Of a stretch of DNA of 64,000 nt, positions 12,444 through 64,000 are shown one piece after another; position 1 is the stretch's first letter, and each line of letters starts with the position of its first letter. Origin of the DNA: a virus; the IMG/VR virus record IMGVR_UViG_3300028895_000704, positions 25,577-89,576 of that record. One strand, given 5' to 3'. The position numbers and the translations under genes were made by a program. The notes under the pieces were generated by a model. That model worked only from the letters and a program-made list of their open reading frames with translations. It made no database searches and was not told the origin of the DNA.

Positions 12444-14765
12444 ATGTCCCTGCACTATAACAACAGAACGAATCAGATCGAAGCGATCGGCACAGCCGGT
12501 ACGCTGGTGAACTTCACCGGGTTGGGAATCAACAACCTGGTCGAAGACACTACGCCCCAACTCGGCGGCGATCTCGATATGAACGGCAACAATATCGAGG
12601 GCGTCACGCCTACGGAGATGGGCTACCTGTCCGGCGTCACATCAGCCATCCAGACACAGCTGAATGGTAAGGCTCCGACCGTGCATACGCACACGGAGTC
12701 GGACATCACTGACCTCGGAAGCTACCTTGAGAACGTCGTGGAAGATACTACTCCTCAGCTCGGTGCTGACTTGGACGTGAACGGACACACGTTCAACATA
12801 GGAGCCAGCACCGGAGCAGCGAACCAAGTCCCAACGTCCAACGGCGCGGGTGGTCTTAGCTGGGCGGCTCCGCAGGTCGTCGCCGACACCACCCCGCAGT
12901 TGGGCGGTGACTTGGACATGAACAGCAACAACATCACCGCGGCAGGTCCGACAACGATCTCGCCGACGGAGGTGTCGTACCTGGACGGCGCGACGTCCAA
13001 CATCCAGTCACAGCTCGATGCGTTGGCTGGCGGCGGTGGCGGCACGGTCCAAGGATCGGACGCGACCTACGACATCCAAGCAGCCAACGAAGGCACGGTC
13101 GCAGGTAACGCCCGTGGTGAAAACTCGGTCGACCTCCAGACTGACCGTGCCCTGGCAACGCAGGTAGCCTCGGCGACGTATTCGGTCATCGTCGGCGGTG
13201 CTCGCAACCGTGTCGACGAGAGCTACAGCTCGATTCTGGGCGGCTATGCCAACTACATCGCTGCGTCTTCGCTGGCGGGTTACCATGTTATTCTCGGCGG
13301 CAGCACGAACACCATCTCTGCGACAACAGGCGAGTTCAACGCCATCGTCAGCGGAGAGGTCAACCAGATTGGCGTGACGACAGCGGCTTCGGATTACTGT
13401 CTCATAGCCAGCGGGCAGCTCAACAAAGCTGATGGCAACTACAACGTGATCTGCGGCGGCTACAACGGCAACTTGGACTCGGCGACTTACGGTTTCATCG
13501 GCAACGGCAGCAATATCGTCGCGACATCGACGGGCTCCTTCAACACGGTTCTGAACGGCTTCTCGCATGATCTGACGGGCTCGGGAGACTACGGGCTGAT
13601 CCTGCAAGGCAACAACAACCAGCTCTCGGCCTTCTATTCGACGGTCATCAACGGCATCAACTGCACGGCGACTGCCAATGGTGCCCTCGTCGCGGGAAAC
13701 ACGAACGACTGTGCCTCTATCTACGGTGTTTGTTTCGGCAACGTGAATGACGTAGGCACTGGCGGGCAATGCAGCATCCTCGGCGGGTCTAGCAACGACA
13801 TCTTCGCAGGCAACTCCAATACGATCTGCGGCGGGCAGAGCAACGTAATCACGACGGCCCAGTCTGATTACAACTTCATCGGCTGCGGCAGCAGCAACAC
13901 GATCGGCGGCGTCGGTAGCGACCGAAATGCCATCTGCGCCGGTGCGACCAACGCTATCGGAACGACGCACGCCTCCTTCAACTGCTTCATCGGCAGCGGC
14001 TCTCAGAACCTCATCAACGCTGATTATGGCGTCATTGGTGGTGGGCTGGACAACGAGATCCAGACTGGCGGCGACTATACGTTCATCGGCTCCGGTACGG
14101 ATCACATCGTCAACGCGTTGTACTGCGTCGTCGCTGGCGGGCACACCAATGTCATCAACACCGGCTCGAACTACGCCGTTATCCTGGGTGGCCTGCAAAA
14201 CACGATCACCACCGCCGACCACAGTTACGTGCTTGGCAGCAACTGCACAATTTCGTCTGGTGCCGATTACTCACAGGTGAGCGGTTATTACGGCGACGCT
14301 TACAACTACGGGCAGCGAGCGAGGGCTTCCGGGCGCTTTGCAGCCACTGGCGATGCACAGACCAGCGAATACACTATTCGGCGTGCGTTGAATCACATTA
14401 ACAATTCCTGGTACGACCTGACGCCTAGCGGTGCCAATCTTACAGGTTCAAACGGGATGGTGTTGAAAGCCAACGCCACCTGGACATTCGACGGGATCGT
14501 TGTCGGGTCCAACGACGCGCAGAGCAAGACAATCCACTGGCGTGTCACCGGTGCCATCAAGAACGTCGGCGGAACGATGACACTGAAGAACGCGGTTGTC
14601 GACGTCATCGACAACAGCGACGATACGCTGTATGAGTGCCAAGTAGTAGCAAATACTACCTATGACGCGCTCAGTATCCAGGTGCGTCGCTCTGTGGCTG
14701 GCGCAGCGCCAGCCGATTCCATGCGATGGGTAGCTCACGTACGCACAGTTGAGGTGATCTACTAA
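12444..14765 (+). CDS. Modular tail fibre protein 4 with long YadA-like head
   Basis: The largest fibre paralogue, 773 aa. The N-terminus (MSLHYNNRTNQIEAIGTAG) resembles that of the next gene. Then come TPQLGGDLDMNGN and HTHTESDITDLGSYLE units (30-190), the linker with NARGENSVDLQT at about 220, and a very long run of GGxxNxI beta-roll repeats (240-620, for example ILGGLQNTITTADHSYVLGS). The C-terminal domain (LKANATWTFDGIVVGS ... MRWVAHVRTVEVIY) is a divergent form of the shared one. The start is two bases after the preceding stop. The role is inferred to be receptor binding, as for its paralogues. Confidence 0.8.
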   Translation: MSLHYNNRTNQIEAIGTAGTLVNFTGLGINNLVEDTTPQLGGDLDMNGNNIEGVTPTEMGYLSGVTSAIQTQLNGKAPTVHTHTESDITDLGSYLENVVEDTTPQLGADLDVNGHTFNIGASTGAANQVPTSNGAGGLSWAAPQVVADTTPQLGGDLDMNSNNITAAGPTTISPTEVSYLDGATSNIQSQLDALAGGGGGTVQGSDATYDIQAANEGTVAGNARGENSVDLQTDRALATQVASATYSVIVGGARNRVDESYSSILGGYANYIAASSLAGYHVILGGSTNTISATTGEFNAIVSGEVNQIGVTTAASDYCLIASGQLNKADGNYNVICGGYNGNLDSATYGFIGNGSNIVATSTGSFNTVLNGFSHDLTGSGDYGLILQGNNNQLSAFYSTVINGINCTATANGALVAGNTNDCASIYGVCFGNVNDVGTGGQCSILGGSSNDIFAGNSNTICGGQSNVITTAQSDYNFIGCGSSNTIGGVGSDRNAICAGATNAIGTTHASFNCFIGSGSQNLINADYGVIGGGLDNEIQTGGDYTFIGSGTDHIVNALYCVVAGGHTNVINTGSNYAVILGGLQNTITTADHSYVLGSNCTISSGADYSQVSGYYGDAYNYGQRARASGRFAATGDAQTSEYTIRRALNHINNSWYDLTPSGANLTGSNGMVLKANATWTFDGIVVGSNDAQSKTIHWRVTGAIKNVGGTMTLKNAVVDVIDNSDDTLYECQVVANTTYDALSIQVRRSVAGAAPADSMRWVAHVRTVEVIY

Positions 14766-16157: not shown

Positions 16158-17060
16158 ATGGCTGAGAAATACTTCCAACTCGATAAGAACCTCCCTGGCG
16201 TCACTGCGCAGGAGCTGTCGTGGCTGGGCGGGCTGAATGACTACATCCAGCCGCAACTGGACGCTACCAATGCGCGAATGCTGACGACCAGGATGGGGGC
16301 TCGCAAGAGCACCGCCGGCACCCTGACAAAGGGGACGCCGTGCTATTTCGTTGGCTGGGATGCCGTCAATATGGTCATGCTTGTCGAGGCATCTGACGCC
16401 AGCGATCCGGCTACGATGCCGGCACGCATGATCGTGGACGAGGAGATGACAGACTCGACCACTGGGCATGCGTCTGTCATTGGCGAGCTGGAAGACATCA
16501 ACACATCGGGCTTCGTCGCGGGCGACGTGCTGTACGTGGTGGCAGGCGGCGGCCTTACCAAGACACCACCTGCTGCGCCCAGCAAACAGCAGAAGGTTGC
16601 CTTCGTGCTGTTTGCCCATGCGGCTTCCGGCAGGATCGCATTTGCTCCGCTGTTGTCTGGGCACTCGCACTCGCTCGACGAGATCGAGAACCTTGACCTG
16701 ATGGTCGTGACGACGGCAGGGCAGAATACGCCGTACTTCGAGGTCAACCAGGTGACGTGGACCTCAGTGGCTAACCTACCGTACGACGGAGCCAACGCCG
16801 TACTCGATAAGATCACCGCAGTGGTCAGCCGCAACGGTACGTCCGGCACGGCTGAACTTCGGATCTACGACGTGACCAACAGCCAGGTGATCGCGACGAT
16901 CACATGGACGGATGATACGATCCACTTGGAAGAGACCACAACCATCAACAACCTGCCATCCAGCAATGCCGTGTTCGAGATCCAGATGCGTAAGAGCACA
17001 GGCGGCGGCGTGAAGACAGCCCGGTGCCACTCGGTACGGTTCCGGCAAAACTCGACGTAG
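16158..17060 (+). CDS. Tail fibre-like protein
   Basis: A 300-aa protein starting MAEKYFQLDKN after GAGGGGC. Its N-terminal GVTAQELSWLGGLNDYIQPQLDA echoes the VTAQEFDYLRNLTGNIQTQLDG segment of fibre 2, so it joins the fibre family by its attachment region. A central beta domain (GTPCYFVGWDAVNMVMLVEAS ... GDVLYVVAGG, about 55-150) resembles small phage tail or capsid beta domains. It is followed by a Gly/Ser/Thr-rich beta C-terminus ending SVRFRQNST. Probably a short fibre or adhesin. Confidence 0.65.
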   Translation: MAEKYFQLDKNLPGVTAQELSWLGGLNDYIQPQLDATNARMLTTRMGARKSTAGTLTKGTPCYFVGWDAVNMVMLVEASDASDPATMPARMIVDEEMTDSTTGHASVIGELEDINTSGFVAGDVLYVVAGGGLTKTPPAAPSKQQKVAFVLFAHAASGRIAFAPLLSGHSHSLDEIENLDLMVVTTAGQNTPYFEVNQVTWTSVANLPYDGANAVLDKITAVVSRNGTSGTAELRIYDVTNSQVIATITWTDDTIHLEETTTINNLPSSNAVFEIQMRKSTGGGVKTARCHSVRFRQNST

Positions 17061-22588: not shown

Positions 22589-24586
22589 ATGTTCAGTTTG
22601 TCACGGGAGCTGGTCCACAGCGAGGCCAAGGCCGTCGGTGCCGACATGCTCGACCGCCAGCAGGCCCTCATCGTGGGCGGGAACGCCCAACTCTATCGCT
22701 ATTCTGTGGAAGACGAGCGTGCCCTGATCGGCATCGGCAAGTACGACTGCGACAACGGTACGGAATACCCGTACCCGTACCGCCCCGAGAACAGCGTCAT
22801 CGACCAGCGGAGCGTCCGGCTGTACGCCGACAACGTCTACCTGCAGATCCACCAGGCATACGGCGGATTCACGCCGGACCAGGAACATTACGATCGCCTG
22901 GTCACCGAGGACGAGTGCCTCATGGAAGACTGCGTTGTCGGCGCCGTCATCGATGTCAAGCTGGACGATCTGCACTTCAGCGCCAAGGTGCTGGGGCATG
23001 CCAAAGACGGAGACTACTACGCCCTGGTTCTTAGCCGAAACCTGCCAGCGCCGATGCGGGCCGCGGATCCTGCGAAGATGCGGTTCCGCGCCTGTGTCGT
23101 ACGGCACGACATCGAGATCCCGGTCGAAGCGTTCGACGGCCAGGTCGACAACTGGTGCGCCCGCGCCGACCACGTCGTCGTTGGCGGCGGCATCTATCTG
23201 GCCGACAGCGGTTGGATCGACGACGGTGAGCCGCACCCGCTCCCGATCGTGGAGGCCGACCTCTACATCCAGTACAAGGCCTGGCGTAGCGAGTTTGCAG
23301 ACACCGTCTACGCCCTGGCGGATGGCGAGGATCTCGATCTGATCCCCGGACAGGAGTCGCCGGCCAACCCGCTGAAGTTCGGTGTGAAAATGGCGAAGCT
23401 GCACTCTAATATCACTGCTGTCAAATTCATCGCCGTGCCGGACCCGGACGATCCGGCATCCTGGGTTGAGACCCTCCGGCGTGCTGGAAAGTTCCGGTTC
23501 TACAGCGTCGTGCCGATGACCACCGATCCGGCAGTCCAGGAGGCCGTGATACAGCTCGTAGACGACCGTTCCCAGGCCGCCACGGGCCGGGAGTGTGTCA
23601 CGTGGCTCCCGCTGCAGGCGCGCGCTACCGTGGCTGTGGCGGACGCCTCGAACAGCGTGGACGGGGCGCCGCTGAAGGCCGTGGTCCGGGAGCAGCCCGG
23701 TGGTGGGGCCTTCCTGGTGGACGTTCAGGAGGGAAATGCGCAATTCCTGTCGCTGGGGGTCCAACCGGGCGATATCCTGCGTTACAACGTCGGCGAAAAT
23801 GGGTATATTGAATATGTCATCCACGCAGTCCTGAACGAGGACGCGGTGGTTGTCCAGGATAGCCAGGGCATCCAACCGTCTGACTTCGCCCACCCGGTCG
23901 AAGTCTGGAGGACATTGGATTCAGACGCAATGGCCGCGCGGGTCGCCGCGAAGGCCAAAGAGTATGGCAGCAAACGCGTCCGTGCCGTGTGGCCGGACCG
24001 TGCCATTGGTGGCGGGGTAGCATTCGACGGAATGTACGTGTGCGCAGCGCTCGCCGGACTCCGGTCCGGCTGCGCGCCGCACCAAAGTTTGGCCGGCGTA
24101 GAGCTAGCCGGCATCGACGAATTGCCAAGGACCGACGAGCTGTTCACGGAGGAGCAGCTCGAGATGTTGACAGACTTTGGAGTGTGGGTGGTCAGCGCCG
24201 ACGACGGTGTCGCCCGCTCTCTACGAGGCTTGACGACAGCAGCGTACGGTGATCCATCGCAACACGATGAGGCGGTGGTCACCAACCTGGATTGTATCTG
24301 TGGAGCGCTGCGAGATGAGTTGAGGTCGACCATCGGTAAAGCGCATGGCGCGGGCCAGATCCAGCATCATGTCATCGCCAAGGCGCACGGTCAACTCAAC
24401 GCTATGTGCGTGACGAGATCACCGCGGGTGGGCAGGCAGCTGATCGACAAGACGGTTCGCGTCGTCCGTCGACACGCTTTCCTGAGCAACCGACTTGTGT
24501 TGAGCCTACGTCTCGTGGTACCGGTACCACAGGAACGTGGGATCACCGCTGGTAATGTCGAGGTGTACCAGCAGATTATCGTATAA
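22589..24586 (+). CDS. Putative tail sheath protein
   Basis: A 665-aa protein, probably the contractile sheath. The C-terminal part has the sheath pattern: GGGVAFDGMYVCAALAGL (about 474-491), then RSGCAPHQSLAGVELAGID and a following FTEEQLEMLTDFGVWVV, and finally a long helix-strand tail (LDCICGALRDELRSTIGKA ... NVEVYQQIIV) as in sheath C-terminal domains. The N-terminal 350 residues are beta-rich inserts. GGGAGAG precedes the ATG at 22589. The following gene has tail-tube size, which strengthens the call. Confidence 0.7.
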   Translation: MFSLSRELVHSEAKAVGADMLDRQQALIVGGNAQLYRYSVEDERALIGIGKYDCDNGTEYPYPYRPENSVIDQRSVRLYADNVYLQIHQAYGGFTPDQEHYDRLVTEDECLMEDCVVGAVIDVKLDDLHFSAKVLGHAKDGDYYALVLSRNLPAPMRAADPAKMRFRACVVRHDIEIPVEAFDGQVDNWCARADHVVVGGGIYLADSGWIDDGEPHPLPIVEADLYIQYKAWRSEFADTVYALADGEDLDLIPGQESPANPLKFGVKMAKLHSNITAVKFIAVPDPDDPASWVETLRRAGKFRFYSVVPMTTDPAVQEAVIQLVDDRSQAATGRECVTWLPLQARATVAVADASNSVDGAPLKAVVREQPGGGAFLVDVQEGNAQFLSLGVQPGDILRYNVGENGYIEYVIHAVLNEDAVVVQDSQGIQPSDFAHPVEVWRTLDSDAMAARVAAKAKEYGSKRVRAVWPDRAIGGGVAFDGMYVCAALAGLRSGCAPHQSLAGVELAGIDELPRTDELFTEEQLEMLTDFGVWVVSADDGVARSLRGLTTAAYGDPSQHDEAVVTNLDCICGALRDELRSTIGKAHGAGQIQHHVIAKAHGQLNAMCVTRSPRVGRQLIDKTVRVVRRHAFLSNRLVLSLRLVVPVPQERGITAGNVEVYQQIIV

Positions 24587-59780: not shown

Positions 59781-62582
59781 ATGTTAAGACGCCGGTCGAT
59801 CAACGCGCATATCGGATGGCACCAGGTGCTGCCATTGCTAGGAATCAAGGCCGCCTCCACGTCCATCCCGCTGATGGTGCCCTGCCCGATGTGCAGGAAA
59901 CCCCGCCTGACTATCTACAATGATAGCAAGTTCGGCGGGAATTGGCACTACTGCCCTGACTGCCATTCCTCTGGAGATATGATAGAACTGGCAGCAAAAA
60001 CGTGGAAGATCAGTTTGGAGGACACAATCCGGCGATTGGTCGCCTCCGGGCTCCCATTCCCGGCGGACGCCGTCACTCAGGAGGCAATCCGGCGCTACGA
60101 GCAGGGCTACGTGGCCGAACAAACGCACATTCGCCGGCTGCGCGAGGACAGCCGCCGGCTGATGGCCGACGGGGACGTCCAGCTCGAGCGCGTCCTCCAG
60201 CAGATGGGCCTCCCGCAGGACCACCAGCGGGCCTACTGGCGGAAGCGCATGGGGCGCTTCATCGGCGGGGCCGACAAGCTCCGCTGCATCCAGGGGTTCT
60301 ACCCGCACGCCGGTCCGCGCAAAGAGAACTCTGTGGGCCGCAACGAGCACGCGAACATGTTCCGCGGCAAGGGCTGGAACGATATGCTCGTGGTGCCCTT
60401 CCACGATCTGCCCGAGCGCTGTGCCGGTGTGCTGTTCATCGGCCGCCACGCCGAGCGAGACAAAGACTACACGTTCCGGCTGGTCGACTCCAAGCTGGCG
60501 CCGCACGGGGCTGCCGCAGCTGTGGCGGAGATCGGCGTGTGCATGGCGGACGTGCTGAACGGCCCGACGTCCCATGCGCAGCTCTTCAAAAATCAGGTGT
60601 TCGTGATCCCCGATCCGGCCACGGCGCTCAAGCTGCAGGCCCGGCACATGAAGGACGCGGACCTCCCGCTGCCGATCGTGGGCACGTACAACGCGCTGGT
60701 CCGCCGGCAGACCCGTAAATGGGAGCTGCGCACGTACGACTTCTGGCGTACCCGACCGGACAAACGATTCATCTTCTGGGACAAGGTGCTGTCGGCCAAC
60801 CTGTTCAACATGGCGGCGCGTGCCGATGGGCTTGTGAGCATCGTCCCTGCTGCGCAATACACGTGGCGGCGGCCGCCGCACATGTGGCTGCGAGACATGC
60901 AGCGCCGGGCGCGACCCTGGGCAGAGGCGCTAGAGGCGCATCTACGCGTAATCCCGGAGGACGCGGCTGCGACGCTGCTGCAAAACATCGACATCCCTCC
61001 CGACATGTTGATGCAATTCACGGATGGCTGCTGCGACGAGGTGCAGGAGCTGCTGGAGCGCCACCGAAAGGCGGCCACGCAGTTCCACAACACGACAGTC
61101 AGGGGCCAGGGCATTGAAGAGATGAGCAATGGCTGGCACGTCGCCAAAACCGGCGAGTGTGTCTGTGACGCCATTCTCAGGGTGGAGAAGGTCATCTGCA
61201 TCGAAGACGACGAGGACGCCGACCCCTACTATCAGGGGAGGATCATCTATGGTAATGAGCAGGTGGAATTCGTTGAGCCCATGAGCAAGATCGAGAGCGA
61301 CCCAGGGACATGGCTCAAGAAGAAGGTGCTGTCCAAGCTCGGCAAGATGGTCGTCATCAAGCGAGCATGGGCACCGCACATTTTCGATATTGCTCGTGGG
61401 CTACACACCCCCGAGGTCATCCGTGAAGACGGAAAGTTCGGCTGGAAGCCACGCGACAGCTGCTTCAGCCTCCCTAAGTTCGCCGTGCACGTCGGAGGTG
61501 AGGTGTGCGACGAGCCCGCTCATGTTGTCGACGCATGGGCACCAGGCCAGGATCTGGATGCGCCTACAGCGGTGATTCCCGATCTCTCTCCGCTGCTGGA
61601 GGACAGCCCAGCAAACGCTCTGGTGTGGGCAACCGCCGCCTGTATCGGAGCGAATATCTTGGCGCCTGCAGTAGGGCAGCACGTGACCGGTATAGGGCTC
61701 ATCGGTCATGGTGCTGTGCTCTGCGGGAAAGAGACTGCAAGAACGTGCGGATGTTGTGAGTACAGTAGTGCGTCTGCGACGCCGGCGGGCATAGACAAAT
61801 CTTTGGGAGTGATAACTGATGTCACAGCCCGGCATCGCTGGCCGTTAATGGTGAACATGCAAAACCAAGCTCGTCGTGTCCAGGACGTCATGGCACACGG
61901 CGGCTACGAAGCAAACACCATCCTGTGCACCGATAAATGGCACGCCGACGTCTGGTCACTCGTTGGTTCGTGGCGGTTTATAAACGGACCCAAGGCCGTA
62001 GAGCCGGGGGCGCATGTGAGGCAGTTATTGCCGCGCGTGCTGCCTCTGTGGCTCAGGCGTATCAGCCAGCGCAAGTTCAAACTGGAATCACATGCGGACG
62101 AATACCTGATCCGCGTGATCGACGACATGGCGTCCATGATGCAAGAGCATGGGCCAGTCAAGGTGATCTACGAGGCTGGCAGCCGTGTAGATAACGTGGC
62201 GGAGCTACCCAAGAAGCCCGCGCAGAAGCTGGTAGCCCTGCTGCATGAGCAAATTTGTGACGGATACATTCGATTCGCACGCCCGGGCGACACGACCAAA
62301 GGGCGAGGCGCGACGATCGTGCGGTGTGCGCCGAAAGACCGTGCGCCAGGCATTTTCATCCCTAGAGTTGCTATCACTGGCATCTGTGAGAAGCGTGGTG
62401 TGATGCCCCCCGATCCGGCCAGGGTAAGCGACGCATTCAAAGCTGCCAATGCACTGGATGGCGAATGCGAGTATGATAATGAAAGGGGCTGGTTTATATC
62501 AGAGTCATGGTGGAACAAGCAGATCGACCGCTGCAACTCTAATCCTCAACACCGGTTAAAGGTAATAGGAGGTGACGAATGA
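59781..62582 (+). CDS. Primase-like protein with DnaG-type zinc finger
   Basis: A 933-aa protein. The N-terminal zinc finger has CPMCRKP (C35, C38) and HYCPDCHSSGDMIELAA (C58, C61), the CHC2 pattern of DnaG/gp4 primases that recognises DNA. Downstream, GVLFIGRHAERD and LFKNQVFVIPDPATALKL may be a degenerate TOPRIM-like region. The C-terminal half includes GIGLIGHGAVLCGKE, which looks like a broken P-loop, so helicase activity is doubtful. GAGGT before the ATG is weak. It would prime lagging-strand synthesis. The exact domain layout needs a profile comparison. Confidence 0.6.
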   Translation: MLRRRSINAHIGWHQVLPLLGIKAASTSIPLMVPCPMCRKPRLTIYNDSKFGGNWHYCPDCHSSGDMIELAAKTWKISLEDTIRRLVASGLPFPADAVTQEAIRRYEQGYVAEQTHIRRLREDSRRLMADGDVQLERVLQQMGLPQDHQRAYWRKRMGRFIGGADKLRCIQGFYPHAGPRKENSVGRNEHANMFRGKGWNDMLVVPFHDLPERCAGVLFIGRHAERDKDYTFRLVDSKLAPHGAAAAVAEIGVCMADVLNGPTSHAQLFKNQVFVIPDPATALKLQARHMKDADLPLPIVGTYNALVRRQTRKWELRTYDFWRTRPDKRFIFWDKVLSANLFNMAARADGLVSIVPAAQYTWRRPPHMWLRDMQRRARPWAEALEAHLRVIPEDAAATLLQNIDIPPDMLMQFTDGCCDEVQELLERHRKAATQFHNTTVRGQGIEEMSNGWHVAKTGECVCDAILRVEKVICIEDDEDADPYYQGRIIYGNEQVEFVEPMSKIESDPGTWLKKKVLSKLGKMVVIKRAWAPHIFDIARGLHTPEVIREDGKFGWKPRDSCFSLPKFAVHVGGEVCDEPAHVVDAWAPGQDLDAPTAVIPDLSPLLEDSPANALVWATAACIGANILAPAVGQHVTGIGLIGHGAVLCGKETARTCGCCEYSSASATPAGIDKSLGVITDVTARHRWPLMVNMQNQARRVQDVMAHGGYEANTILCTDKWHADVWSLVGSWRFINGPKAVEPGAHVRQLLPRVLPLWLRRISQRKFKLESHADEYLIRVIDDMASMMQEHGPVKVIYEAGSRVDNVAELPKKPAQKLVALLHEQICDGYIRFARPGDTTKGRGATIVRCAPKDRAPGIFIPRVAITGICEKRGVMPPDPARVSDAFKAANALDGECEYDNERGWFISESWWNKQIDRCNSNPQHRLKVIGGDE

Positions 62583-62854
62583 AGGCCACCAAGATGCTGA
62601 GGACGTGCAAGCTCGTGCTCCAGGAACTGGAGGATCTCGAGGAGATGTTGCCCTTCATCCCGGGCGACCAGCGTGCGGATCAGTTCATCCACGAGAGCCG
62701 CGGAGCCGTGACGGAGCTGCAGCTCATCGCAAAGTTCGAGACGGTGGACAACGTCACCTCCGAACAGGCCTTGCACATTCGGACGATCCAGGGCAGAATC
62801 AATAAGCTTAGGAACATGGTTCCTGAGGACATACGAAAAGAGTTCGGAGACTAG
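62579..62854 (+). CDS. Small helical partner of the primase-like gene
   Basis: A 91-aa protein starting on an ATGA overlap, with GGAGG upstream. Almost entirely helical (CKLVLQELEDLEEMLPF, HIRTIQGRINKLRNM), suggesting a coiled-coil dimer. Translationally coupled to the primase-like gene, so perhaps a regulator or loader. Its stop codon (62852-62854) is part of the first helix of the structured RNA. Confidence 0.6.
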   Translation: MKATKMLRTCKLVLQELEDLEEMLPFIPGDQRADQFIHESRGAVTELQLIAKFETVDNVTSEQALHIRTIQGRINKLRNMVPEDIRKEFGD

Positions 62855-63290
62855 TGGTAGACGGAAATCTGCGGCGGGAATGGCTTTTAGGTCCAGTGCC
62901 CGCTTGCCGGCCGGTTCGACTCCGGTGACCACACGAACCACTGGGCAGGTCAGTATCTGGCTGGGGCTGTAGGTCTCGGCTAAGCGGGCGCAACTCCCGC
63001 CAGACGGTTCAACAGTCGCTTGAGATACCCTCGGTAAACCGAGCGGCCGGGCCTATATGGTCGAGGGTACAGCGCTAGCCAGCTTCGACTGGGACTGTTG
63101 GTAGGACAGACGTAGGCGATAAACCGGTAGGCAGCCGCCGCGCTAAACGCGGGAGGGCACCGGGAACCGAATAAAACCTACGAGCGCCCTTTGGGTGAGG
63201 ACAGTTAAAGCTACTTATGCCTCGGCGGCGTGTGCTAAGGGAAAGCCCGCAAGGGTGCAGCATTAGTCGTAGCGCCGCAGCCCATTTTTG
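62851..63290 (+). ncRNA. Ornate structured RNA, about 440 nt
   Basis: No credible gene is present. Nested perfect helices are: CTAGTGGT/ACCACTGG (62851-62858/62937-62944), GCGGG/CCCGC twice (62874/62899 and 62984/62996), CAACAGTC/GACTGTTG (63010-63017/63093-63100) enclosing TACCCTCG/CGAGGGTA (63026/63062), CCAG-CTTCGA-CTGG, CGTAGG/CCTACG (63111/63177) enclosing CCGGT/ACCGG and CCGCG/CGCGG, and GCGGCG/CGCCGC (63225/63273), then CCCATTTTTG. Residues 62910-62926 form a tRNA-like T-arm (GCCGG-TTCGACT-CCGGT). Located beside a tRNA and an HNH gene. It does not match RNase P, tmRNA or a group I core that I can recognise. Confidence 0.6.
62910..62926 (+). other. T-arm-like hairpin within the structured RNA
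   Basis: GCCGG (62910-62914), loop TTCGACT, CCGGT (62922-62926) is a canonical T-arm with TTCGA. Flanking GTGGT (62854-62858) and ACCAC (62928-62932) could form an acceptor-like stem and AGA-CGGAAA-TCT a D-like arm, but the anticodon arm is too long for a normal tRNA. Confidence 0.45.
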
Positions 63291-63307
63291 ATATTGCTCA
63301 TAACCAC

Positions 63308-63356
63308 ACATGGCGGGTATGATACGGAAAATCAACCGTATCGGAGCCCGCCATGT
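63308..63356 (+). promoter_or_regulatory. Hairpin that buries the HNH start codon
   Basis: ACATGGCGGG (63308-63317) pairs over 10 bp with CCCGCCATGT (63347-63356), which contains the ATG at 63353. Inside, GATACGG (63321-63327) pairs with CCGTATC (63336-63342). The Shine-Dalgarno GGAG (63343-63346) lies in the internal loop. Translation should be blocked on long transcripts, as known for I-TevI of phage T4. Confidence 0.7.
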
Positions 63357-63700
63357 CGCGTAATTCAGAGAAACGTCGCGCTAGCCAGCGGAAAGCGCAG
63401 AACAAATACTACCAGAAGAACAAGGCCTACTACAGGCAGAAGACTAAAGAGCATAAGGCCCGGGTCAAACAGTGGGTCTTTGAGTACAAGCAGACGCATC
63501 CGTGTATTGAGTGCGGGGCCGACCACCCTGCGTACTTGGTATTTCATCATCGCGACCCTACGGCAAAAGATTTGGAAGTCGCGAACATGATCAGTCGCGG
63601 ATGGGGCTTGCGCCGTATTGAGAAGGAGATCGAGAAGTGCGACGTGTTGTGTGCAAATTGCCATATGCTGTTGCACTGGGAAGAAAATGATGCGGGGTAG
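63353..63700 (+). CDS. HNH endonuclease
   Basis: A 115-aa protein. The basic N-terminus (RRASQRKAQNKYYQKNK) precedes an HNH core: PCIECGADHP (about 50-59), LVFHHRDP (about 62) and VLCANCHMLLHWEE (about 98), giving CxxC, HH and CxxCH. It differs from the two endonuclease VII-type copies. Its stop TAG (63698-63700) lies inside the tRNA gene, and its start is inside a hairpin. It may be the mobile partner of the surrounding structured RNA. Confidence 0.85.
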   Translation: MSRNSEKRRASQRKAQNKYYQKNKAYYRQKTKEHKARVKQWVFEYKQTHPCIECGADHPAYLVFHHRDPTAKDLEVANMISRGWGLRRIEKEIEKCDVLCANCHMLLHWEENDAG

Positions 63701-63764
63701 TGTAGTGGCCTAACACGCAGGGCTCATATCCCTGAAATCGCAGGTTCGAATCCTGTCCCCGCTA
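63691..63764 (+). tRNA. tRNA-Met(CAT), initiator-like
   Basis: Cloverleaf: acceptor GCGGGG/CCCCGC (63692-63697/63757-63762) with a T1-T72 mismatch; D-stem GTGT/ACAC; anticodon stem CAGGG/CCCTG with loop CTCATAT (anticodon CAT); variable loop AAATC; T-arm GCAGG-TTCGAAT-CCTGT; discriminator A, no encoded CCA. The three G:C pairs next to the anticodon loop and the unpaired 1-72 position are hallmarks of initiator tRNA. The T11-A24 pair is elongator-like, so the class is not settled. Confidence 0.85.
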
Positions 63765-64000
63765 CTGCTGGTGACCATGTAAACAAGAAGGCAGAGGTGG
63801 TCTGTAACGGTATCGTACGCCGGCCAACCTGTGGACGCCCATAGGTTGAGCAAGCCGAACCAGCACAAGCACTCGCCACCCCATATGACACCTCATGGGG
63901 GAGCGTCCCGCGAGTCCATAAATCGCGATGCGAAGGACAAACGGTTGGCGTTAGTGCAGCGTGTGGCGAAGGTGTCTAGCAGCGGCCGGGCAATAGTCAG
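63765..64000 (+). ncRNA. Structured sequence after the tRNA, running off the window
   Basis: No gene is visible. TGCTGGT (63766-63772) pairs with ACCAGCA (63859-63865), AACCT with AGGTT (63826-63830/63842-63846), ACTCGC (63871-63876) with GCGAGT (63910-63915) enclosing CCCCAT/ATGGGG (63879-63884/63895-63900), and ATCGCGAT at about 63922 is a palindrome. The density of helices resembles the RNA at 62851-63290, so this may be the start of a second RNA. Confidence 0.4.

What the first reader, a model, noticed from the sequence alone, without database searches (positions are those of the whole stretch)
62851..63290. Large ornate RNA between a primase-linked gene and an HNH gene
About 440 nt with no gene, nested perfect helices (8-bp CAACAGTC/GACTGTTG enclosing 8-bp TACCCTCG/CGAGGGTA, and a second three-layer stack at 63111-63182), a tRNA-like T-arm and a T-rich end. 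Large phage RNAs of unknown function such as GOLLD and ROOL are known to lie near phage tRNA genes; this has the same setting, but I see no sequence match that lets me assign it.
Basis: partly seen in the sequence, partly recalled or inferred. Interest (0 to 1): 0.85.

Follow-up and report, generated by a model that had tools for sequence, protein, structure and literature searches.

The report
Structured RNAs in phage tRNA array
A gene-free stretch in the tRNA gene array of an uncultured tailed phage holds at least two small folded RNAs that distant relatives keep through paired mutations; they match no catalogued RNA family, and their job, perhaps on the translation machinery, is unknown.

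Summary
The stretch 62851-63290 has no plausible gene and holds the helices described. Relatives change the picture from one large ornate RNA to separate modules. Module E1 (63024-63073, the inner 8-bp helix and its loop) occurs in 3 of 5 phage lineages found, the window's included: all 45 base-pair cells form and 6 of 15 pairs change on both sides; 0 of 500 shuffles reach either. Module E4 (63188-63287) recurs in one distant lineage that also has E1. There E1 lies just before tRNA-Glu and E4 just after it; in the window a non-tRNA segment separates them. The outer 8-bp helix and the three-layer stack have no relative to test them. The whole 440 nt folds like shuffles (z -1.0). A consensus T-arm at 62910-62926 is unlikely by chance. 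No Rfam family reaches its cut-off there; GOLLD and ROOL models gave no match, with weak controls. The nearest known kind is T4 RNA C and RNA D: non-tRNA stable RNAs in a tRNA array beside a homing endonuclease. Best reading: phage RNAs made with tRNAs, freed by tRNA-processing enzymes, acting in trans, probably on translation. Structure is shown for E1, supported for E4; transcription, processing and function are inferred.

The parts
62854..62897 (+). 5' segment with no homologue found; GTGGT 62854-62858 could pair with ACCAC 62928-62932 behind the T-arm (an incomplete tRNA-like acceptor stem)
   Evidence: Fold of 62854-62934 pairs GUGGU/ACCAC but z -0.73; acceptor scan finds no 7-nt partner with 6 or more pairs.
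62898..62989 (+). 92-nt unit closed by a perfect 8-bp helix GCCCGCTT/AAGCGGGC, carrying the T-arm on a junction
   Evidence: z -2.91, 3 of 200 shuffles fold as well; borders chosen after seeing the helix. No homologue found, so no covariation test. Its fold conflicts with the GTGGT/ACCAC pairing.
62910..62926 (+). T-arm: 5-bp stem GCCGG/CCGGT with the 7-nt loop TTCGACT (the tRNA T-loop consensus TTCRANY is recalled)
   Evidence: Pattern scan; 0.02 per kb in shuffled sequence.
63010..63100 (+). outer 8-bp helix CAACAGTC/GACTGTTG enclosing E1
   Evidence: Present; 91-nt fold z -2.01, 7 of 200 shuffles as good, but that minimum-energy fold uses other inner pairs than E1. Not testable: I see no counterpart in the relatives that have E1.
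63024..63073 (+). module E1: 8-bp helix 63026-63033/63062-63069, then a 4-bp and a 3-bp helix inside
   Evidence: Homologues L036 16651-16701 and L035 12880-12928; 6 of 15 pairs change on both sides, 45 of 45 cells paired, each in 0 of 500 shuffles.
63074..63187 (+). 114-nt middle segment with the three-layer stack GTAGG/CCTAC, CCGG/CCGG, CCGCG/CGCGG; stands where L036 has tRNA-Glu
   Evidence: Sequence; fold of 63104-63190 z -0.40; no homologue found.
63188..63287 (+). module E4: hairpin GAGG 63197-63200 / CCTC 63220-63223 with a conserved loop (19 nt here, 17 in L036), and a second arm with CTAA 63235-63238 / TTAG 63263-63266, closed by an outer stem
   Evidence: Homologue L036 16775-16858; 35-nt block at 88.6% identity; 17 pairs kept in both, 2 with both sides changed.
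63285..63289 (+). run of five T after the closing stem of E4
   Evidence: Sequence; not among the terminator-like sites.
63312..63352 (+). strong hairpin GGCGGG...CCCGCC that ends at the HNH start codon, with GGAG (63343-63346) between its helix strands
   Evidence: z -4.4 and -4.9 in two overlapping scan windows; letters.
63353..63700 (+). HNH endonuclease gene, 115 aa
   Evidence: phrog_3106, E 4e-30; no Pfam family.
63691..63765 (+). tRNA-Met (CAT); its first 10 bases overlap the end of the HNH gene
62579..62854 (+). 91-aa gene upstream
   Evidence: no Pfam or PHROGs family; a DNA match that runs from the end of the 933-aa gene into it in L036, 64.7% over about 286 bases.
59781..62582 (+).
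   Evidence: No Pfam or PHROGs family; used to find relatives. Primase resemblance is recalled, not tested.

Best explanation
The stretch is non-coding RNA in the tRNA array of a probably contractile-tailed phage and holds at least two distinct structured RNA modules, E1 and E4. They are phage stable RNAs of the kind of T4 RNA C and RNA D. They are transcribed together with the tRNAs, cut free at neighbouring tRNA ends by the host's RNase P and 3' tRNA-processing enzymes, and act in trans. Their place in tRNA arrays, the T-arm and the tRNA-sized units point to translation (tRNA or ribosome binding, or mimicry). Shown: structure conservation of E1, homology of E4, position in tRNA arrays. Inferred: transcription, processing, trans action, translation target.
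For: E1 covariation in three lineages; models R1 and R2 find E1 in 7 of 11 and E4 in 5 of 11 records, once in each. In L036, on one strand: tRNA-Asn ends 16588, E1 16651-16701, tRNA-Glu 16703-16775, E4 16775-16858, tRNA-Gln from 16862. In L035 E1 12880-12928 precedes tRNA-Glu at 12930. T4 has rnaC, rnaD, tRNA-Arg and the segB homing endonuclease gene in one row with 6, 1 and 5 nt between them, and RNA C carries a T-arm. The window has this RNA, an HNH gene and tRNA-Met in a row.
Against: No transcript data. In the window itself E1 and E4 are not bordered by tRNAs, so excision by tRNA enzymes is less direct there. Neither R1 nor R2 matches the T4 locus. E4 rests on two sequences, E1 on three. 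The parts 62855-63023 and 63074-63187 have no homologue found. Whole-region folding energy is ordinary, and E1 alone is not exceptional by energy (z -0.93 in the window).
Confidence: 0.6

Rival explanations
1. One large RNA of the GOLLD/ROOL kind spanning all 440 nt, folded as a unit, perhaps oligomeric.
For: Similar setting: near tRNA islands, one GOLLD downstream of Met-tRNA, tRNAs sometimes in the GOLLD linker (PMC12286853, passages). Three perfect 8-bp helices, two nested.
Against: GOLLD model: 0 of 8 records (no control over the cut-off); ROOL: 0 of 8 with a silent control. E1 exists without E4 in L035. Whole-region z -1.0. Many GOLLD RNAs exceed 800 nt.
Confidence: 0.15
2. E1 and E4 are cis elements of the tRNA transcript (leader and spacer structures that guide processing or protect ends), not RNAs with a role of their own.
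For: E1 directly precedes tRNA-Glu in two lineages and E4 fills the space between tRNA-Glu and tRNA-Gln in L036.
Against: In the window E1 and E4 stand away from any tRNA-Glu; the window lineage's own tRNA-Glu (L030 15243) has no E1 hit beside it.
Confidence: 0.15
3. Decayed tRNA genes and spacer left by homing-endonuclease traffic, with no function.
For: T-arm without a full acceptor stem; an HNH gene beside tRNA-Met, and a second HNH-like ORF, judged by reading its translation only, before the second tRNA-Met (L003 10443-10841).
Against: Six both-side changes in E1 with no broken pair, and a 35-nt block in E4 at 88.6% between phages whose neighbouring 933-aa protein is 45% identical, show constraint. 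For the segments without homologues this remains open.
Confidence: 0.1

Closest known systems
Bacteriophage T4 RNA C and RNA D (species 1 and 2 stable RNAs)
   Same: Non-tRNA RNAs in a phage tRNA array, RNA D 1 nt from tRNA-Arg, near a homing endonuclease gene; RNA C has a T-arm with the TTCGAAT loop. Like the window RNA, they reach no Rfam cut-off (only sub-threshold matches over them, such as tRNA-Sec 17.5 bits against 47).
   Different: No hit with R1 or R2 at E up to 10. A 10-nt likeness, GTAARCCGAG, between E1 and RNA C is absent from two of five RNA C sequences, VPA32 and NM4.3, and is probably chance.
GOLLD RNA (RF02032)
   Same: Phage or prophage RNA near tRNA islands, tRNAs sometimes in its linker (PMC12286853, passages).
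   Different: No match to the model; shorter; modules separable.
ROOL RNA (RF03087)
   Same: Phage RNA near tRNA islands.
   Different: No match (control silent).
tRNA-like RNA at L031 17286-17424 in a relative of this phage
   Same: T-arm with a 7-nt loop in a phage tRNA array, not called a tRNA by ARAGORN.
   Different: Has a perfect 7-bp acceptor stem and is 139 nt; no sequence match to the window stretch.

Membership tests
GOLLD (RF02032) | match to the curated covariance model | tested here: not met
   0 of 8 records at E up to 10; 5 of 14 control genomes rang, none over the cut-off, so there is no true positive control. Nothing at gathering score in the window.
ROOL (RF03087) | match to the curated covariance model | tested here: inconclusive
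   0 of 8 records, but none of 14 control genomes rang; no gathering-score match in the window.
tRNA / tmRNA | cloverleaf or tmRNA detected in 62851-63290 | tested here: not met
   ARAGORN only tRNA-Met at 63691, tRNA search also with introns up to 300 nt; Rfam tRNA only at 63691.
plant-virus tRNA-like element (RF00233, Tymo_tRNA-like) | match at gathering score | tested here: not met
   21.7 bits against a cut-off of 40, E 0.077, at 62942-63014; not followed up.
group I/II intron, RNase P RNA | match to the Rfam models at gathering score | tested here: not met
   Only tRNA found in the window. The E-value mode of the tool missed a known LSU match (versus 21), so one search is weaker evidence for long models.
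T4 RNA C / RNA D kind | stable non-tRNA RNA encoded inside a phage tRNA array | tested here: inconclusive
   Position met; stability and transcription cannot be tested here.
T4 RNA C / RNA D kind | sequence or structure homology to T4 RNA C or D | tested here: not met
   No R1 or R2 match in L063 at E up to 10.
T4 RNA C / RNA D kind | discrete abundant RNA after infection | not testable with these tools
   No transcriptome of this uncultured phage.
ribosomal RNA fragment | match to 16S or 23S rRNA | tested here: not met
   SSU 0 of 9 records; LSU in 2 of 8, G006 and G008, not in the window's lineage. blastn against E. coli rRNA: one weak window match far away, at 22934-22980, E 0.045.

The most novel reading that the evidence does not exclude
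E1 and E4 are the two ends of one RNA scaffold whose middle is exchangeable: in L036 it displays a tRNA-Glu, in the window phage a non-tRNA domain. It would be a modular phage RNA that carries or presents different RNAs, comparable to the tRNAs in GOLLD linkers but of unrelated build.
Probability: 0.15. Interest if true: 0.85.

Novelty: new member of a known kind. Interest (0 to 1): 0.58.

Why it matters
T4 RNA C and D have, as far as I recall, no known function after about fifty years, and phage tRNA arrays are read mostly for their tRNAs. Here covariation shows that another phage group keeps different structured RNAs in the same setting, and they stand at different places of the array in different lineages. 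This gives defined units of about 50 and 100 nt, with homologues, that can be expressed, pulled down and mutated.

Tried and rejected
Rejected: rRNA origin of the window RNA (a resemblance of 63112-63181 to the 16S 530 loop was a thought from memory and found no support). Rejected: tRNA with intron. Rejected: tmRNA, RNase P, group I/II intron. Considered and not supported: circularly permuted tRNA at 62898-62989 (by reading, only 5 bp where the acceptor would be). Considered: pairing of AGTAGC before E1 with GCTACT in E4 of L036; by reading, not kept in the window. Considered: T4 RNA C homology through GTAARCCGAG.

Led nowhere: blastn of the 440 nt in phages (2 records, both at E 5). The 15-mer of E4 in viral contigs gave 18 stretches, of which 4 show the element (L021, L022, L029 of the window lineage and L028 of G007); the contexts of the other 14 are unrelated. 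The E1 pattern gave 6 stretches, 6 in known relatives. The 933-aa protein: in genome contigs 20 pattern matches, 0 confirmed; 0 in phages. The coiled-coil neighbour reaches Bacillus phage G at 29.5% over 72%, but phage G has no E1 or E4 match. Weak further hits of the models were taken as chance: R1 in L036 5580 (14.2 bits, E 0.27) and L031 4515 (11.6 bits, E 1.4), R2 in L033 7639 minus strand (11.6 bits, E 1.1). Within-lineage comparison is uninformative: window, L030, L032 and L034 are identical over 13,220 bases but for one site at 63981. RF01998 was searched by a wrong accession for GOLLD and is a group II family (weak hits in 1 of 8 records, below cut-off). In the R2 model the four innermost pairs I named are off by one column; the E4 pair counts come instead, and the CTAA/TTAG versus CCGA/TCGG helix is my reading of the letters. 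AnYang was fetched and not used.

Full report
What was checked. The window is bases 25577-89576 of a virus record of 89,576 bases. The stretch 62851-63290 lies between a 91-aa gene (62579-62854) and an HNH gene (63353-63700, phrog_3106 E 4e-30), followed by tRNA-Met (63691-63765). The phage has matches to a tail sheath (E 6.7e-7) and a baseplate wedge (E 6.3e-8), so it is probably contractile-tailed. No plausible gene covers the stretch.

Helices. Three perfect 8-bp helices within a span of 110 nt exist in the 440 nt, against a mean of 0.62 in 2000 dinucleotide shuffles; a nested pair occurs in 14 of 2000 shuffles and in 2 of 145 tiled windows of the 64 kb. A consensus T-arm sits at 62910-62926; simply shuffled sequence gives 0.02 such arms per kb. 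Folding energy as a whole is ordinary: z -1.0 for the plus strand and -1.4 for the other; all 12 of the 90-nt windows wholly inside have z of -1.24 or higher. Of the sub-units folded alone, 62898-62989 (z -2.91) and 63010-63100 (z -2.01) stand out, both with borders chosen after seeing their closing helices.

Relatives. The 933-aa neighbour finds five lineages in IMG/VR: the window's own (window, L030, L032 and L034 are identical over 13,220 bases but for one site), L031, L033, L035 (with L037) and L036, the other four at 42-47% protein identity. By reading and by blastn none of the four has the 440-nt stretch behind the 91-aa gene (L037 was not read there). But a local comparison of gene-free gaps in the tRNA arrays shows that part of 63024-63073 (E1) matches a stretch just upstream of tRNA-Glu in L035 (68% over 50 nt, E 0.005), which in turn matches L036 (73% over 100 nt), and that 63188-63287 (E4) matches the stretch between tRNA-Glu and tRNA-Gln in L036 (85% over 40 nt).

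Covariation. On the three E1 sequences a 15-pair structure is kept in 45 of 45 cells; 6 pairs have a change on both sides (four in the 8-bp helix, one in each inner helix). None of 500 shuffles reaches the paired percentage, the both-side changes or the covariation score; for the number of further pair types 113 of 500 do. Sliding the partners by 1-3 columns leaves no both-side change. The structure came from RNAalifold on the same alignment, so the slides favour it by construction; the number of both-side changes is the stronger point. E4 has two sequences: 17 pairs kept, 2 with both sides changed; reading the letters adds a 4-bp helix CTAA/TTAG in the window against CCGA/TCGG in L036, two of its pairs compensated. 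Its hairpin block is nearly unchanged (35 nt at 88.6%). Models made from these alignments find single copies: E1 in 7 of 11 records (3 of 5 lineages), E4 in 5 of 11 (2 of 5 lineages). G004, G005, phage G (G009) and the record G010 have neither. An E1 pattern over viral-contig hits 6 stretches, all in these phages.

Anatomy. In L036: tRNA-Asn, 62 nt, E1, tRNA-Glu, E4, tRNA-Gln; the model hits leave 1 nt before tRNA-Glu, overlap it by one base behind, and leave 3 nt before tRNA-Gln. In L035: E1, tRNA-Glu, tRNA-Gln. In the window: T-arm unit, E1, a 114-nt segment with the three-layer stack, E4, T run, HNH gene, tRNA-Met. The order E1 then E4 is kept while what lies between differs. The window lineage's own tRNA-Glu has no E1 hit beside it. 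The outer helix and the stack have no homologue. E1 is disfavoured in free folding of the whole stretch (probability 0.01; forcing its 8-bp helix costs 5.2 kcal/mol), which shows that whole-region folds can mislead here.

Mechanism. Most likely these are phage stable RNAs made with the tRNAs, set free at tRNA borders by tRNA-processing enzymes, and acting in trans, probably on translation. The spacing in L036 and L035 fits this; in the window processing must differ because no tRNA borders the modules. T4 is the nearest known case: rnaC, rnaD, tRNA-Arg and the homing endonuclease gene segB in one row, RNA C with a T-arm. T4 RNA C and D reach no Rfam cut-off either (sub-threshold matches only), so a blank Rfam result says little about kind. 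Homology to T4 RNA C or D is not found. Among five RNA C sequences (T4 and four picked from the 40 rows listed of 718 records), two (VPA32, NM4.3) have a different middle part while the 5' start and the T-arm part are kept, so such RNAs do exchange parts.

Literature. PMC12286853 (passages) gives the setting of GOLLD and ROOL and the tRNAs in GOLLD linkers. PMC4810234 (passages) treats T-loops and the L1 stalk. PMC9693318 (passages) treats phage tRNAs. Others were seen only as search listings; no title or abstract start listed there describes these modules. The library holds only part of the literature.

Verdict. A real, new, small structured RNA pair in a phage tRNA array; a new family of a known kind, function unknown, with a testable proposal. 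The claim of one large ornate RNA is not supported.

Noticed in passing
L035 16276-16359 (contigs 3300025066_000032, 3300025133_006513 and 3300006789_006855): A free-standing copy of the 23S rRNA L1-stalk region in a phage: 74.6% identity to E. coli 23S 2109-2179, LSU model 58.1 bits in G006 and G008, with a closing stem GGTTG/CAACC and a T-rich end. It could mimic the L1 or tRNA-elbow binding site (the L1-stalk numbering is recalled). In viral contigs 5 stretches match a pattern of it: 3 are this phage, 1 (L073) lies in plain rRNA, 1 (L072) at a contig end is unresolved.
   Followed up: partly
L031 17286-17424: A 139-nt tRNA-like RNA behind tRNA-Ile: perfect 7-bp acceptor AGAGCGG/CCGCTCT and T-arm ATCGG-TGCAAAC-CCGAT, not called a tRNA by ARAGORN.
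   Followed up: partly
L003 10253-10317: tRNA-like element that reads as acceptor, D-arm and T-arm with only about 12 nt where the anticodon arm should be; weak tRNA-Sec match, 23.5 bits against 47.
   Followed up: no
L031 18310-18421 and L033 13940-14015: Another shared element beside tRNA-Glu in two more lineages; helix CCGAGG/CTTCGG against CCGGGA/TCCCGG, by reading, suggests paired changes.
   Followed up: partly
L003 9986-10442, 10925-11140, 12048-12242, 12317-12780: The rest of this phage's tRNA array holds four more gaps of 195-464 nt without a clear gene and with no match in the gaps compared from other lineages; two of them match each other weakly (E 0.012).
   Followed up: no
window 63312-63352: Very stable hairpin ending at the HNH start codon (z -4.9 in the scan window 63301-63390), possibly a translation control of the endonuclease.
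   Followed up: no
window 63691-63700: The HNH gene's last codons and stop lie inside the tRNA-Met gene.
   Followed up: no
L033 16918-16993: ARAGORN calls a tRNA with a four-base anticodon (cagg) in a relative, a possible frameshift suppressor.
   Followed up: no
L033 16455: A perfect T-arm GGAGG-TTCAAGT-CCTCC outside any called tRNA and without an acceptor partner.
   Followed up: no
L003 11169-12047: A coiled-coil-like protein (by reading) inside the tRNA array in four lineages, related to Bacillus phage G gp268 at 29.5%.
   Followed up: no
window 62942-63014: Sub-threshold Rfam match to a plant-virus tRNA-like element, 21.7 bits against 40, E 0.077.
   Followed up: no
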